Assembly: GCA_944391325.1 (NCBI GenBank)
Contig: CALXTC010000013.1
Span: 1-55,727 of the forward strand
DNA: 55,727 nucleotides
Direction: 5' to 3'
Origin: an uncultured Candidatus Saccharibacteria bacterium
Lineage (GTDB): Bacteria > Patescibacteriota > Saccharimonadia > Saccharimonadales > Saccharimonadaceae
Shown: piece after piece, positions 26,861 through 34,540 of the stretch
Layout: each line of letters begins with the position of its first letter
Position numbering within the stretch: the stretch's first letter is position 1
Translations under genes and position numbers: made by a program
The notes under the pieces: model-generated
The model's input: the letters and a program-made list of their open reading frames with translations, nothing else
What the model was told of the DNA's origin: nothing
Databases searched by the model: none

Positions 26861-27448
26861 CTAAGCGTGAACCTTCACGACGTGCATGGTCACGCTGCCG
26901 GTCGGATGACCATTGTCGCCAACGTGACGACTTTTGTCGAAACAGTCGTTCGGATGGATTACTAGGCTGACCGTCTGATCGGTGCCAGCTACCGTCCACT
27001 CGTTTAGGACAAGTTTGCCGTTAGCCTTAATCTCAACGGCGCCATTCCCCTGAGTGGGCGGCTTGAAGCAAATGCTGCGAAGAGTGCCGTTATCCATGGC
27101 GTTGCACAGAGCCTCGCGACTCGAGTTGATACCACCGTCACTCTTGGCGACCATTGCCACCAGAATAGTGCCGGGGTTTGCGACTAGGCAGTCCCGGATT
27201 TCTCGCCCGATCCCGACGACATCGAGGTCGCTAGCCTGACTGATGTCGGTCATGTCGATGCGCTTTAGACTGTTTTCATTGCAGACGGCAGCGATTTTGC
27301 CCTTGGTGGCATGATCAACTTCGCCAATCTGCTTTGCCGTCAAGCCACTGCCATAGAGCAGGACGGGCTTGATCAGCTTGTTGCCTTTCTGTAGCTCCCA
27401 CGAGCTGCGTCGCGTAGTGGACATTTGCGGTTTTTTCGGCTTACCCAA
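26861..27448 (-). CDS. Unknown protein, 195 aa
   Basis: No family recognised. The N-terminal 25 residues are basic (GKPKKPQMSTTRRSSWELQK). The middle part alternates strands and helices (KPVLLYGSGLTAKQIGEVDH, VGIGREIRDCLVANPGTILVAMVA), and the last third is strand-rich with several His and Asn residues (VSLVIHPNDCFDKSRHVGDN, GSVTMHVVKVHA). A TTG start at 27448 is chosen because AGGAG lies 6 nt upstream; an ATG 8 codons later (MSTTRR) has no SD, and a longer frame upstream overlaps the leader. The previous gene ends 34 nt upstream, so the two are cotranscribed. Codons are GC3-rich. Confidence 0.6.
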   Translation of the reverse strand: MGKPKKPQMSTTRRSSWELQKGNKLIKPVLLYGSGLTAKQIGEVDHATKGKIAAVCNENSLKRIDMTDISQASDLDVVGIGREIRDCLVANPGTILVAMVAKSDGGINSSREALCNAMDNGTLRSICFKPPTQGNGAVEIKANGKLVLNEWTVAGTDQTVSLVIHPNDCFDKSRHVGDNGHPTGSVTMHVVKVHA

Positions 27449-27482
27449 TTTGCTCTCCTGTAGGTTGGTGGTGCATGGAAGT

Positions 27483-27908
27483 TTAGGCGGCCGCGCCGTC
27501 AAACGGTATGTAGCTGCAACCGTCGTCTGTGGTGATGCTCAACGATACGCAAACCTGTCGACCAAGACCATTTGCCGTTACGATGTAGCCTAGCATCGAC
27601 AGACAAGCGTCGCACTTGCTGTAGTCATACTGCTTGCCACGAACTTTACTTCTAGTCGGGCTAGCTGTGACTGTGCCAGCCTTGATGGCAATGTCGACAG
27701 TGCCACCCGGCATACTAACCGCAGTTAGTGTGGCGCTGCTAGCCTTGTTCAGGCGACTAGTCCAGTGCTTCAGTTCGTCAAAGTCGAGCGACTTGGCGCT
27801 AGCAAACTGCTCCAACGGAAACTGAGTTTCATGGCAGCCGATGACATCACGCTCGCGCATGTTGATTTGGGGCTGTCGCAGTGCGACGCGCCCATTGACC
27901 TCTGACAA
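27483..27908 (-). CDS. Unknown protein, 141 aa
   Basis: No family recognised. It begins with a TTG codon: AAGGAG lies 8 nt upstream and no ATG in frame has an SD. Features: a helix around residues 30-55 (LEQFASAKSLDFDELKHWTS), a strand-rich middle (ATLTAVSMPGGTVDIAIKAG), a basic loop SPTRSKVRGKQYDYSKC with two nearby Cys (C-D-A-C), and C-terminal strands (VCVSLSITTDDGCSYIPF). The long leader carries three hairpins and a possible 14-codon upstream ORF. It is first in a two-gene operon with the 195-aa protein. Confidence 0.6.
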   Translation of the reverse strand: MSEVNGRVALRQPQINMRERDVIGCHETQFPLEQFASAKSLDFDELKHWTSRLNKASSATLTAVSMPGGTVDIAIKAGTVTASPTRSKVRGKQYDYSKCDACLSMLGYIVTANGLGRQVCVSLSITTDDGCSYIPFDGAAA

Positions 27909-29657: not shown

Positions 29658-30602
29658 CTAGTGGTTGGCGACAAACTCGCGGACGGCGCCGGCGTAATCC
29701 TCGTTCTCAAGGACGTACTCTAGCTGAGCCATGAAGTAGTTCTTCGGGTCACCAGTAGTGCGCCACTGCCCCTTGGTCCGTTCGACGTAGACAGTGCTAC
29801 GCGCCGAGGGCGAGGCCATGTCATCCTTAGCCATCTGGGTGATGGCGTCGACCGTCCACAGCTCGCCATCTTTGCCAGTAGCGCTCGGCCGCAAATAATC
29901 GAAAACACGCGGTGTCAGCAAATAGCGACCGTAGCTGGCAAGAGTTGACGGCGCCTCGCTAATGCTGGGCTTCTCGATGATGTTGTCCAGCAGATTACTG
30001 CCATAGACCTCATCTGTACTCTGCAAACTGACGATGCCATACTTGTTCACCTCGGTGCGCGGCACCTCCTGGGTCATGATGATGGCACTGGCGTCAGGGT
30101 GCTGGTCGAACGACTTCAACAGTGTTGCCACGTCGGACGAACCAAGTACGATGTCGTCGCTATAGCAGACGATAAAGGCTTCGTTCCTGGCGATATAGTC
30201 CTTGGCGCTGACGATGGGCGAGCCGTTGCCATACGGCAGGGCTGGGTCCTGAGTAATGACGCAGATCTTCGGTAGGTCCAGAACCTGCTCAACCTCGGCG
30301 TAGCGATTTAGTTTGCCCTGTGCCTTCAGCTGTTTCTTAACAGTGGTAACGGCGTTGCCGAAGTAGTCCTCGTAGATGGGTTTTCCCTCGGTGGTCGTAA
30401 CAATGATGATGTTGTCGATGCCAGCCGTAGCGCACTCTTCGACCACCAGCTGCATGATCGGCTTGTTCCCCATGGGCGCCATCGCCTTAGGGTTGGTTTT
30501 GGTCCACGGTAGGAACCGACTGGCAAAGCCAGCGTCGGTGATAATTGCCGTAGTCGGTCGCTCGTACGGACGAGTTGTAGTTGTCTGTTGCTTTTCAACC
30601 AT
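29658..30602 (-). CDS. galU: UTP-glucose-1-phosphate uridylyltransferase (GalU-like)
   Basis: A 314-residue sugar nucleotidyltransferase, probably making UDP-glucose from UTP and glucose-1-phosphate for surface glycans. The N-terminal nucleotide-binding loop is DAGFASRFLPWTKTNPKAM (canonical form AG-L-G-T-R-x-x-P-x-T-K-x-x-PK); here the Gly-Thr positions are Ala-Ser. VVEECATAGIDNIIIVTT, CYSDDIVLG and GIVSL also fit the family. Substrate preference within the nucleotidyltransferase family is inferred. The ATG at 30602 has GGAGGAA 3 nt upstream; an in-frame start four codons earlier has none. The leader contains a GTGACA/TGTCAC hairpin. Codons are GC3-rich, as in other SD-led genes here. Confidence 0.85.
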   Translation of the reverse strand: MVEKQQTTTTRPYERPTTAIITDAGFASRFLPWTKTNPKAMAPMGNKPIMQLVVEECATAGIDNIIIVTTTEGKPIYEDYFGNAVTTVKKQLKAQGKLNRYAEVEQVLDLPKICVITQDPALPYGNGSPIVSAKDYIARNEAFIVCYSDDIVLGSSDVATLLKSFDQHPDASAIIMTQEVPRTEVNKYGIVSLQSTDEVYGSNLLDNIIEKPSISEAPSTLASYGRYLLTPRVFDYLRPSATGKDGELWTVDAITQMAKDDMASPSARSTVYVERTKGQWRTTGDPKNYFMAQLEYVLENEDYAGAVREFVANH

Positions 30603-30628
30603 AGTTTCCTCCATTTAACGTGCAGTGT

Positions 30629-30677: not shown

Positions 30678-31631
30678 TTAATCAAGCCAGAGTATCAGAA
30701 GTACAGACAGTAGGCTCGCAATAATTAAAAATATAGATGAAGCGGATATGCTCATCAATATACTTCGACCGTGTCTTCGGCGGTATTTAGCCACCGTTGT
30801 CAGTCTCATTGGCTGATGATGGCTAGTTTTACGATAGACGGACAACTGGTCATTTATTTCATCCTTAAGCCTGGCAATATCACCAACAAATTTGTTGAAC
30901 TTGGCTGACGAGCTGATAGCTAGGGGGCTGGTTATGATGTATAGATGGTCGCCATTGATTTCAAAGTTTGCTCGATAGTTGGTAAATGCGTTGTTGTCGC
31001 TACTGAAATTCAGCATATCTTCCATGACGTCGGGTGTAATGATTTGTAGTGCGTCGATATGGCTATGACGTGGAATTTCCAATCGATAGAATTTACTAAA
31101 TGCTCCCTCAGTCTGAATTGTCTGCATGGATTGCCTGGCGATAAATGAGTCGTCGCCCGTGACAATGATTTTTGGTCCAACACAATTCAACTTAACGATA
31201 GCGACTAATAGCGAGTTGGTTTCGGCCTGTGGGGTTATGCCATAGGTCGGGTAACTACGTAGTCCATCGCTTGGGGTAATATCATACAGGGCTAGCCGAA
31301 TGGACTTATCTGGCCAAATTACAAAGCTATACATTCGCCCCGCATTAATTCCATCTAGGAAATAACTAGGTGGAATTTTGTAAATTAGGCTGTTGTTATG
31401 ATAACGGTATTCAAATCCACTGTTGGCTAGGGCGAATTTAGCCAGTTTATACGAAAGAGCCTGGTATGACCATGAATCTATTGATCTTTCATATTCGTGG
31501 CCTCGAACGATGCCGTCGGTGTTGGCTATTAGCCCAGTAGTCAGTAGTTCATCATTGGTGAAGTCGTGTTTTGTAAACGGCTTGTCCAGAGGACTGACGT
31601 CTAATGACGGTGGCGTAGGTTGACTAGTCAT
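30678..31631 (-). CDS. Tail-anchored partner of the KwaB-like protein, unknown
   Basis: A 317-residue protein with a soluble mixed alpha/beta body (YKIPPSYFLDGINAGRMYSF, KIIVTGDDSFIARQ, FEINGDHLYIITSPLAIS), a helix near residues 238-256 (FVGDIARLKDEINDQLSVY), a basic segment (KYRRRHGR) and one C-terminal transmembrane helix (SSIFLIIASLLSVLLILWL). It is therefore predicted to be tail-anchored in the cytoplasmic membrane facing inward. No family was recognised. Its ATG overlaps the end of the upstream KwaB-like gene by 8 nt, so the two are coupled. In canonical Kiwa the partner KwaA is a multi-TM protein; this one is not obviously related. Confidence 0.65.
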   Translation of the reverse strand: MTSQPTPPSLDVSPLDKPFTKHDFTNDELLTTGLIANTDGIVRGHEYERSIDSWSYQALSYKLAKFALANSGFEYRYHNNSLIYKIPPSYFLDGINAGRMYSFVIWPDKSIRLALYDITPSDGLRSYPTYGITPQAETNSLLVAIVKLNCVGPKIIVTGDDSFIARQSMQTIQTEGAFSKFYRLEIPRHSHIDALQIITPDVMEDMLNFSSDNNAFTNYRANFEINGDHLYIITSPLAISSSAKFNKFVGDIARLKDEINDQLSVYRKTSHHQPMRLTTVAKYRRRHGRSILMSISASSIFLIIASLLSVLLILWLD

Positions 31632-32718
31632 TGCGTTCTTCTAGTAGTTTTTTGCTCTTTATTTCGTATTTTAGCCCAGTTAAATCGCTGGTCATAAAGT
31701 CGTCATTTAGTAGCCCAACAAACGTATCGATATCCTTGCTATCCATAATGATAATAGCGCCATCGTCTGTCGTCATTAGATCTAGACCCATTTCCTCGCC
31801 ATAACTGACCAGTTCATCTTGTGTTTTGGTGCCTAGTTCAAGATTCTGCAGTTTATTAATTAGTTTTGGCTTGCCAGCAACCATGGTATTCAAATCTTGG
31901 CCTTCGGGGAAGTTCAGGTTATAGCGAGATAGAATTTGCTCGACCTTTTTATCGGCTATGGCCTGTTTTTTGTAGTTGTAGCCAAACATTGCCTCAAACT
32001 TTTTAGGAGCAAAGGCAAAAATTTGCTGATTTAGTTCGCCGAATTCATTCTTGTTGTTGCCTGCAATCAGTACTTGGTTGTCGGTTGGCACCTTAAAGGC
32101 AGCAGCGGCACTGAATTGCTCCAGTTTGCCATCCTCGCCAATCTCCCAGGCGGTTCGTTCATTTAGACTGCTGCTACCTGATACTTGTTTGCAAACATAA
32201 AATGGATCGATGTCGCTATGGGTGAATTTAGCGATAATCATTTTAATGTTCTTGAATTCATGATCATATTCATTGAAGTTTTCAATACTGCTACGCTCGT
32301 GTTCAATAACATTTAGGACGTGGTCGGCGTTGCTGACTTGCTTGCGTGTAGAATATAACAGGACGCCCGGCTCGGTCTCTGATTTTTCGAACTCGCGAAT
32401 TTCCAAGCCTAACCCCGCACCCTTTTCAATCTCATTCAATACCTCTAGTACAAAAACAGGGCCAATTTGCGGTTTTAGGTCGTTTGTAATGGCCAGATGA
32501 TAAACCGTGTAATGTTTGTTAACCAAAAACAAATCAACGTCCAGGTCATTTTTAATGCGACTCAGATGATTAGCCCAGGCAAAGATGTCAAATTGAGTAT
32601 CTGCGGTTGTGGCTATCTGTTCTTTGTTATCCGCATTATTCGCGGCAGATGTGCTGTCGGCTATGTTGTTGTCTGTTGTCCCCACCCGATCTAGATTCTG
32701 TTCATCGGTATTATCCAT
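31624..32718 (-). CDS. KwaB-like (DUF4868) protein, putative Kiwa-type defence component
   Basis: A 364-residue soluble protein. A disordered acidic N-terminal 45 residues is followed by a body of roughly 310 residues, the usual DUF4868/KwaB size. The C-terminal region, KPKLINKLQNLE and then DIDTFVGLLNDDFMTSDLTG with a final basic stretch, resembles the family's conserved ending (DI-x-x-FL-x-LLNDDY-x-x-S-x-LT). AKFTHSDIDPFYVCKQVSG also fits. In Kiwa, membrane KwaA senses phage and KwaB binds DNA to block late phage transcription and replication. The assignment is from memory of the family pattern. TATAAT lies 7 nt before the ATG, with no SD (leaderless). Confidence 0.6.
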   Translation of the reverse strand: MDNTDEQNLDRVGTTDNNIADSTSAANNADNKEQIATTADTQFDIFAWANHLSRIKNDLDVDLFLVNKHYTVYHLAITNDLKPQIGPVFVLEVLNEIEKGAGLGLEIREFEKSETEPGVLLYSTRKQVSNADHVLNVIEHERSSIENFNEYDHEFKNIKMIIAKFTHSDIDPFYVCKQVSGSSSLNERTAWEIGEDGKLEQFSAAAAFKVPTDNQVLIAGNNKNEFGELNQQIFAFAPKKFEAMFGYNYKKQAIADKKVEQILSRYNLNFPEGQDLNTMVAGKPKLINKLQNLELGTKTQDELVSYGEEMGLDLMTTDDGAIIIMDSKDIDTFVGLLNDDFMTSDLTGLKYEIKSKKLLEERND

Positions 32719-32774
32719 AGGGGTAATTATACCATAAGCAAAAATGGCCGGTAATATAATGTTGTGGTGATGTA

Positions 32775-33240
32775 CTACAGCTGGTCTACTAGAATTGGAT
32801 TAGTTAATTTCATCTCGCGAGCACGATTAGCCCACTGATCGGCCAGCTCGTTGAGTTCTGTTCCTGCGTGGCCGCGTGTCCAGACTAGTTTGATAGTTGT
32901 TGGGTCATAAAGGTCGTAAAGTTGCTTGACTAAATCAAGATTTTTAATTTCACCACTCTTTTTACGCCAACCGTTCTTTGCCCAACTTGGTGCCCATTTG
33001 GTTAAAACGTTAATCCAGAATTCGCTATCAGTAGTAATCTGGCATGGCTGCCCATTAGCATCGTGCATAGCCGTCAAGATGGCCGTTGCCTCCATACGAA
33101 TATTGGTGGTCTGGTCGCGGTTGACCAGTGAATCATTGCTTTCGCCACCAATTAGATATGGCCTACCGTCGCGTATAACGGCGAATCCACCGGGTCCTGG
33201 GTTGGGACTGGCGCTACCGTCGGTATAGTACGTAATCATG
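32775..33240 (-). CDS. rnhA: Ribonuclease HI
   Basis: A 154-residue endonuclease that cleaves the RNA strand of RNA:DNA hybrids. The catalytic carboxylates are visible in YYTDGSASPNPGPGG (Asp near 7), NIRMEATAIL (Glu), ITTDSEF (Asp) and LNELADQWANRA (Asp), and the flexible-loop His in WTRGHAG. The basic protrusion KNGWRKKSGE is present, which marks the RNase HI rather than a truncated type. A longer frame exists upstream, but the ATG at 33240 has TATAAT 6 nt upstream and begins exactly at the first strand (leaderless). Confidence 0.95.
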
Positions 33241-33382
33241 ATGGTATTATAGCAATATTTAGCACGCTCAAGTGCGTTAGAGTGTGCCACGCCGCTTCAC
33301 GTCGTGTTTGCATATGTTCTTTGGTTGTACGATAATTATTAATGACATAACAGTAATTTGCGATCGTGTATGGGAGGTAACT

Positions 33383-34540
33383 ATGTCAAATGATTTAGGC
33401 TTTAGGCTACTACGACTGGAAAGCAAAACGCCAAAAAACGTAATGCTAAGCCCGCTGTCGGTTCGTTATGCGTTGAGTATGTTGGCTGATGCTACTGCCG
33501 GTGAAACACACGAGCAGATTGCTAGTATCCTAGGTGAAACGCCACTTCCTAAATACGGTAATTTGGACAATGTAATCGCCTTTGCTAATGCGTTTTATAT
33601 TCGTAATACATTTGCGACGCGAATTAAGCAATCATATCAGGATAGATTGGTTGGGAGCTATGATGCTGAAATTATTCTGGACGATTTTGCCAATGCTACC
33701 AATGTCAACGGCTGGATAGAGGGAAAAACTATGGGGCAAATCAAAAATACCCTTAGTGACAATGCTGTCTCTAGTCCACTAAATAAAGCGATGTTGATCA
33801 ATACTCTGGCTATCGATATGGCCTGGAGAGATCCGTTCGAAGAGTCGGGGACGCATGGTCAAGATTTTTATATGAGCGACGGCAGCAAGATGACGGCTAC
33901 TACCATGCATCAAAAAACCTATGGCGATGCTGTTTCGTACTATCAAGACGACAGATTAACGGCATTGTCTATGGTCTTGCAACCATATGATTCCACCAGT
34001 ATGGAATTTGTGGCAATCATGCCGAATGGGAATTTAGCTGATTATATTCAAGATTTCAGCTCGACGGAGTTTGATGATATTACCAGTAAGTTGACTCCAG
34101 CTTCGGCATATCAGGGTGATTTGATAATAAATGTACCAAAGTTCTCGTTTGATTTTAGTGCCGACCTGGTTAATGATCTGATGACATTAGGCATAGACAG
34201 GGTATTTAGTGATGTCGCTGATTTTACACCGATGATTACCCCGGCGTCGGACGGTCAGCCGTTTGGCGTGTCTAATGTTATCCACAAGACGCATATTGAT
34301 TTTGGCGAAAAGGGTGTTCGCGCGGCGGCCGTTACCGTAGTAAGCATAAGAATGGGGGCGGTTATGGTGAAAGAAGTCGTGCCACCTATGATTATCGATC
34401 TTGATCGACCATTTATGTATGTTATTCGTGATCGGCAAAATGGTGAAATATGGTTTGTTGGCACAATGTACGAACCGAATGCATGGGAAAATGATGAAGG
34501 TGTCTACAGGGATGCCTATCGTGCTGGATTACATTATTGA
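33383..34540 (+). CDS. Serpin-family protease inhibitor without signal peptide
   Basis: A 385-residue serpin. Visible hallmarks are SPLSVRYALSMLADATAGET (helix B/C region), MLINTLAIDMAWRDPF (N-T-x-x-x-x-x-W-x-x-PF), the hinge EKGVRAAAVTVVSIRMG and the C-terminal PPMIIDLDRPFMYVIRDR plus GEIWFVGTM. The small-residue hinge suggests loop insertion and an active inhibitory mechanism, though Val-Arg at P14-P13 is less ideal and the loop after the hinge is about five residues longer than in alpha-1-antitrypsin, so P1 cannot be fixed. The N-terminus MSNDLGFRLLRLES has no signal peptide. GGGAGGT lies 5 nt before the ATG; the longer frame from 33284 lacks support. Confidence 0.9.
   Translation: MSNDLGFRLLRLESKTPKNVMLSPLSVRYALSMLADATAGETHEQIASILGETPLPKYGNLDNVIAFANAFYIRNTFATRIKQSYQDRLVGSYDAEIILDDFANATNVNGWIEGKTMGQIKNTLSDNAVSSPLNKAMLINTLAIDMAWRDPFEESGTHGQDFYMSDGSKMTATTMHQKTYGDAVSYYQDDRLTALSMVLQPYDSTSMEFVAIMPNGNLADYIQDFSSTEFDDITSKLTPASAYQGDLIINVPKFSFDFSADLVNDLMTLGIDRVFSDVADFTPMITPASDGQPFGVSNVIHKTHIDFGEKGVRAAAVTVVSIRMGAVMVKEVVPPMIIDLDRPFMYVIRDRQNGEIWFVGTMYEPNAWENDEGVYRDAYRAGLHY

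What the first reader, a model, noticed from the sequence alone, without database searches (positions are those of the whole stretch)
30678..32718. Kiwa-like pair with an unfamiliar tail-anchored partner
A 364-residue protein with the DUF4868/KwaB-type C-terminus overlaps by 8 nt a 317-residue protein that has one C-terminal membrane helix. Canonical KwaA is multi-TM, so this may be a CPR-specific Kiwa variant or a new two-gene defence system. The first gene is leaderless.
Basis: partly seen in the sequence, partly recalled or inferred. Interest (0 to 1): 0.75.

Follow-up and report, generated by a model that had tools for sequence, protein, structure and literature searches.

The report
Core KwaB-like gene, optional membrane neighbour
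A protein built like the DNA-binding half of the Kiwa anti-phage system is not a mobile defence gene here: it is an almost universal, single-copy, fixed-position chromosomal gene of this family of ultra-small bacteria (Saccharibacteria), and the membrane protein next to it is a variable neighbour, not the Kiwa sensor.

Summary
Both ORFs are real: KwaB-like 31624-32718 (-), 364 aa; tail-anchored 30678-31631 (-), 317 aa; 8-nt overlap. The first protein is a genuine distant, full-length KwaB relative. NCBIfam KwaB matches 30/30 orthologs (best 2.7e-20) and PF16162 exceeds its cut-off in 14 of 15 orthologs (not the window copy). A low-confidence model still retrieves only Kiwa KwaB structures (E 4e-6).

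"Kiwa-like system" is not supported. The gene occurs in 169/198 family genomes (126/139 high-quality), almost always once, in a fixed block (RNase HI - kwaB - Pif1 helicase - YvcK - mraZ/ftsI). KwaA is absent from the own genome. True KwaA+KwaB Kiwa occurs in only 4/197 family genomes, each also carrying the core gene elsewhere; two sit beside DNA methyltransferases.

The partner is not KwaA. It is a derived member of a fast-evolving DUF3137-like membrane family that lost its N-terminal TM hairpin. It is absent beside kwaB in a same-genus genome, yet relatives recur near kwaB more than chance (15/36 within 6 kb, all same strand).

Best reading: a KwaA-less, vertically inherited KwaB paralogue acting on chromosomal or incoming DNA, with an optional membrane neighbour. 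Mechanism is inferred, not shown.

The parts
31624..32718 (-). KwaB-like (PF16162/DUF4868) core gene, 364 aa. About 40 variable N-terminal residues, then a conserved body starting at DIFAWAN (residue 44), ending in the C-terminal LLNDDFMTSDLTGLKYEIK motif
30678..31631 (-). Optional neighbour: DUF3137-like membrane-family protein, 317 aa, one C-terminal TM helix (about residues 295-316); lacks the N-terminal TM hairpin of its relatives; overlaps the kwaB-like gene by 8 nt
32719..32734 (-). Extended -10-like promoter (TGGTATAAT), its hexamer ending 7 nt before the kwaB-like ATG; consistent with leaderless transcription
   Evidence: sequence and upstream comparison
32775..33290 (-). RNase HI gene directly upstream (ORF 171 aa; the true start is probably the ATG at about 33239); part of the conserved block
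   Evidence: PF00075 E=1e-28; found upstream of kwaB in about half of 59 loci
29658..30614 (-). Nucleotidyltransferase (GalU-type), next gene downstream; directly follows kwaB in the same-genus genome that lacks the partner
   Evidence: PF00483; locus L047

Best explanation
The 364-aa protein is a KwaB-family protein that works without KwaA and is kept as a vertically inherited core gene by one family of Saccharibacteria, and patchily by other families of the same order. Shown: full-length relation to KwaB, near-universal single-copy presence, a conserved DNA-metabolism and cell-division neighbourhood (RNase HI, Pif1-like helicase, then YvcK and the mraZ-ftsI cluster), no KwaA, and separate genuine Kiwa loci in a few of the same genomes. 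Inferred: it is a cytoplasmic, probably dimeric DNA-associated protein, as KwaB is, expressed from its own promoter and acting on chromosomal or incoming DNA. The most likely role is genome maintenance (R-loop, replication or recombination) alongside RNase HI and the Pif1-like helicase, rather than a switchable anti-phage response. The tail-anchored 317-aa protein is an optional, fast-evolving DUF3137-like membrane neighbour. It may tether or modulate the KwaB-like protein in some species, but it is not required for its retention.
For: Distribution: 169/198 family genomes, 126/139 high-quality, almost always one copy. Synteny in 59 loci, extending to other families of the order. Distances co-vary with TopA, which is unlinked in most genomes (r=0.48, 0 of 2000 permutations as high). 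About 57 columns at least 93% conserved across 60 orthologs. KwaB relation. No KwaA in the own genome. Real KwaA-KwaB pairs in only four family genomes, each of which also has the core gene. No match on plasmids or phages. Partner optional: 77/197 genomes by profile, absent beside kwaB in G052 and G077.
Against: DNA binding was not tested for this clade; the proteins are acidic (pI about 4.5-5.1), though the Kiwa KwaB of G054 is acidic too (4.9). KwaB is reported to have anti-phage activity without KwaA (PMC11514479), so a constitutive defence role is not excluded. Outside the family the gene is patchy (23 of 104 order genomes), which could mean loss or transfer. The structure model is of low confidence (pLDDT 45). 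A housekeeping role rests on gene context only. The TopA correlation is only moderate.
Confidence: 0.5

Rival explanations
1. A fixed, always-on innate defence protein: the KwaB-like protein binds incoming phage or competence DNA and blocks its replication without KwaA, and was retained because CPR bacteria have few other defences.
For: It is a KwaB relative. KwaB is reported to act without KwaA (PMC11514479), and Kiwa's KwaB binds DNA and blocks replication and late transcription without cleaving it (PMC12904381). In the window, DprA and topoisomerase I genes lie nearby.
Against: Defence genes are normally patchy and mobile; this one is near-universal, single-copy and syntenic, and coexists with true Kiwa.
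Confidence: 0.27
2. A Kiwa-like two-gene membrane system in which a DUF3137-like membrane protein replaces KwaA and tethers the KwaB-like protein to the membrane.
For: The two genes overlap here. DUF3137-like genes lie within 6 kb of kwaB in 15 of 36 cases, all on the same strand, 7 within 250 bp; about 1.75% per gene expected at random. Kiwa likewise pairs KwaB with a membrane protein (PMC12904381).
Against: Most kwaB-bearing genomes have no such neighbour, including a same-genus one. Its position varies (directly upstream, directly downstream, or after Pif1). The relatives are multi-copy (four hits in the own genome). No KwaA similarity. Shared descent of one chromosomal block can explain the linkage, and the naive p value ignores shared descent.
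Confidence: 0.15
3. The partner is an envelope factor related in fold to TtfA (mycobacterial trehalose monomycolate transport factor) that sits in this block by chance.
For: The best structural match, and the only one with high probability, is TtfA 6t84 (E=3.7e-3, probability 1.00, TM 0.54 by target).
Against: Model confidence is low (pLDDT 51), the E-value is borderline, and there is no significant sequence match to any solved structure.
Confidence: 0.08

Closest known systems
KwaB of the Kiwa anti-phage system (PF16162/DUF4868; NCBIfam NF041623; PDB 9mrx, 9nyu, 9mtn, 9o0i)
   Same: Similar over nearly the full length by profile (30/30 orthologs, best 2.7e-20); only KwaB structures are retrieved significantly by fold search; shared C-terminal motif around LxxDDYxxSxLTxxxY.
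   Different: Far below the equivalog cut-off of 200 bits; no KwaA; near-universal single-copy core gene in a conserved housekeeping block instead of a sporadic defence-island gene.
Genuine Saccharibacterial Kiwa, e.g. G054 (L201:6483-7983, KwaA 180 aa + KwaB 324 aa beside a methyltransferase, NgoFVII-type nuclease, Z1 and Vsr genes)
   Same: Its KwaB is the closest non-core relative found (165.6 bits to the core profile, 27% identity to the window protein).
   Different: It has KwaA, lies in a restriction-modification island, and coexists with the core gene 680 kb away in the same genome.
DUF3137 (PF11335) membrane proteins, for the partner
   Same: Weak domain similarity (6 of 11 relatives hit, best E=9e-4); the relatives have an N-terminal TM hairpin and a C-terminal TM.
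   Different: Below the Pfam cut-off for the window protein, which lacks the N-terminal hairpin and is only about 20% identical to its relatives.

Membership tests
KwaB-like protein family (PF16162) | Score over the curated Pfam cut-off | tested here: inconclusive
   Window copy 19.9 bits vs 26.3; 14 of 15 orthologs in the order pass, up to 46.8 bits
KwaB-like protein family (PF16162) | KwaB fold over the full length | tested here: met
   Top six PDB matches are all KwaB, E 3.9e-6 to 3.8e-3, next match 0.32; caveat: low-confidence model, TM 0.33
Kiwa anti-phage system | KwaB equivalog (NF041623 at least 200 bits) | tested here: not met
   29.7 bits
Kiwa anti-phage system | Adjacent four-TM KwaA (NF041622 / PADLOC KwaA) | tested here: not met
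   Partner has no KwaA hit; no KwaA in the own genome, 78% complete
Kiwa anti-phage system | Sporadic, accessory distribution (about 1.8% of genomes, PMC11514479) | tested here: not met
   169/198 family genomes, syntenic
Kiwa anti-phage system | KwaB binds DNA and blocks phage replication | not testable with these tools
   Needs biochemistry or phage challenge
DUF3137 (partner) | Over the Pfam cut-off | tested here: not met
   15.3 bits vs 26.1; best E among relatives 9e-4
DUF3137-like Saccharibacterial membrane family (partner) | Homology over the core domain plus C-terminal TM | tested here: met
   Single-sequence E=3.6e-12 to a relative; alignment A1

The most novel reading that the evidence does not exclude
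An anti-phage effector fold (KwaB) has become a fixed core chromosomal gene of a whole bacterial family, working with RNase HI and a Pif1-like helicase in genome maintenance; or, in reverse, Kiwa's effector was recruited from such a gene. In some species it is coupled to the membrane by a DUF3137-like protein unrelated to KwaA.
Probability: 0.4. Interest if true: 0.72.

Novelty: new variant of a known kind. Interest (0 to 1): 0.5.

Why it matters
Defence-finding tools and first-pass readers could call this gene Kiwa (PADLOC KwaB models hit it), although it behaves as a core gene; defence counts in CPR genomes could be inflated. If the KwaB fold has a housekeeping role, that gives a handle on what KwaB recognises and on where Kiwa came from. 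Saccharibacteria can now be genetically manipulated (PMC10633639), so the question is directly testable.

Tried and rejected
(1) Partner as a KwaA: rejected. (2) Mobile-island origin of the pair: neighbours are RNase HI, a GalU-type nucleotidyltransferase, DprA and topoisomerase I, and the gene is syntenic in other genomes; no plasmid or phage match. (3) Sequence search of the PDB: nothing significant for single sequences, only borderline KwaB with the profile. (4) AlphaFold2 with few sequences gave low confidence for both proteins. (5) Rfam on 27-38 kb: nothing. (6) Promoter and terminator consensus scan: not clearly above shuffles. (7) Literature on a core KwaB in Saccharibacteria: none found in the held library. 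The main Kiwa structure paper is not held.

Full report
What is there. On the minus strand, an RNase HI gene (32775-33290), the KwaB-like gene (31624-32718, 364 aa), the tail-anchored gene (30678-31631, 317 aa) and a GalU-type nucleotidyltransferase (29658-30614) follow one another. The two genes of the finding overlap by 8 nt. The KwaB-like gene has an extended -10 sequence (TGGTATAAT) whose hexamer ends 7 nt before its ATG, so leaderless transcription is plausible. Close relatives share this arrangement; most other orthologs do not.

Is it KwaB? Yes, as a distant relative. For the window copy alone the evidence is modest: NCBIfam KwaB E=3.6e-7 over residues 55-356, PADLOC KwaB 5.5e-8, PF16162 E=8e-4 and below its cut-off. 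With orthologs it is firm. All 30 aligned orthologs match NCBIfam KwaB, best 2.7e-20. PADLOC KwaB models match all 30. PF16162 is over its curated cut-off in 14 of 15 orthologs of the order found in a phylum-wide sample; the window copy is the exception. A low-confidence AlphaFold2 model (pLDDT 45) searched against the PDB returns six KwaB chains first, E 3.9e-6 to 3.8e-3, and the next match only at 0.32. The window copy scores 29.7 bits against the 200-bit NCBIfam equivalog threshold.

Is it a defence system? The distribution says otherwise. The gene is found in 169 of 198 genomes of the window's family, 126 of 139 among the high-quality ones, and nearly always once. With a profile, it is found in other families of the same order patchily (23 of 104 genomes), and nowhere outside the order in 380 genomes sampled across the phylum. 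In 59 loci the neighbourhood is conserved: GlyS, RNase HI, often MetK, then the KwaB-like gene, a Pif1-like helicase, a GH1 glycosidase, YvcK, HAD, and the mraZ-rsmH-ftsL-ftsI cluster. Distances correlate with those of TopA (Pearson 0.48, none of 2000 permutations as high). No plasmid or phage record matches an orthologue.

An internal control exists. Four of 197 family genomes (G054, G183, G120, G004) carry a KwaA-like gene with a KwaB directly after it; a fifth weak hit (G193) is broken by stops and was not pursued. In G054 and G004 these pairs sit near cytosine methyltransferases, and in G054 also beside an NgoFVII-type nuclease, Z1 and Vsr genes. All four genomes also carry the core gene elsewhere. 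In G054 the Kiwa KwaB lies about 680 kb from the core gene, and the two proteins of that genome are only 26% identical. In a tree of 60 core orthologs and four Kiwa KwaBs the core proteins form one group without any Kiwa KwaB, with modest support of 0.76.

The partner. A single-sequence search finds its relatives at E down to 3.6e-12. An alignment of 11 shows a family of 330-390 aa membrane proteins with an N-terminal TM hairpin, a conserved core (LEGDF...TPDxM...) and a C-terminal TM. The window protein has lost the hairpin, which is why it looks like an unfamiliar tail-anchored protein. The family resembles DUF3137 only weakly and has no KwaA similarity. With the profile, 77 of 197 family genomes have at least one member, and the own genome has four hits. 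It is absent next to kwaB in a same-genus genome (G052: kwaB-GalU) and in a 78%-identical relative (G077: kwaB-DprA-TopA). Where present, such genes lie within 6 kb of kwaB in 15 of 36 cases, all on the same strand, 7 within 250 bp. At random about 1.75% per gene would be expected; the naive binomial value of about 1e-17 overstates significance because the genomes share ancestry and the profile was built from linked copies. A low-confidence model of the partner (pLDDT 51) has mycobacterial TtfA as its best match (E=3.7e-3), which is a lead and not a result.

How it most likely works. In Kiwa, KwaA is a membrane tetramer bearing KwaB dimers, and KwaB binds DNA and blocks replication and late transcription without cutting (PMC12904381); KwaB is reported to have an anti-phage effect without KwaA (PMC11514479). 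By analogy, the core protein is probably a DNA-associated dimer acting without KwaA. Its fixed place with RNase HI and a Pif1-like helicase points to genome maintenance. Constitutive defence is the main rival, and a membrane-coupled two-gene system with the DUF3137-like protein is a weaker one. None of these functions has been tested, and the proteins of this clade are acidic.

Noticed in passing
33284-34540 (+): A full-length serpin (PF00079, 218.6 bits), a serine protease inhibitor family unexpected in such reduced bacteria; divergently placed next to the RNase HI gene.
   Followed up: partly
L201:6483-7983, L202:536-2094, L203:3832-5287, L204:3626-5031: Genuine KwaA-KwaB Kiwa pairs in four genomes of the same Saccharibacterial family, two of them near cytosine methyltransferases, each coexisting with the core KwaB-like gene.
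   Followed up: yes
related loci, e.g. L053, L054, L057, L059, L060, L084: Type IV prepilin-like genes (GFTLVELLIVIV) sit directly beside the core kwaB-like gene in several genomes, often convergent, between it and the Pif1-like helicase.
   Followed up: no
26861-27908 (-): Two ORFs (141 and 213 aa) between the DprA and topoisomerase I genes have no Pfam match.
   Followed up: no
30678-31631 (-): Low-confidence structural resemblance of the partner to mycobacterial TtfA, an envelope mycolate-transport factor; curious because known Saccharibacteria hosts are Actinobacteria.
   Followed up: partly
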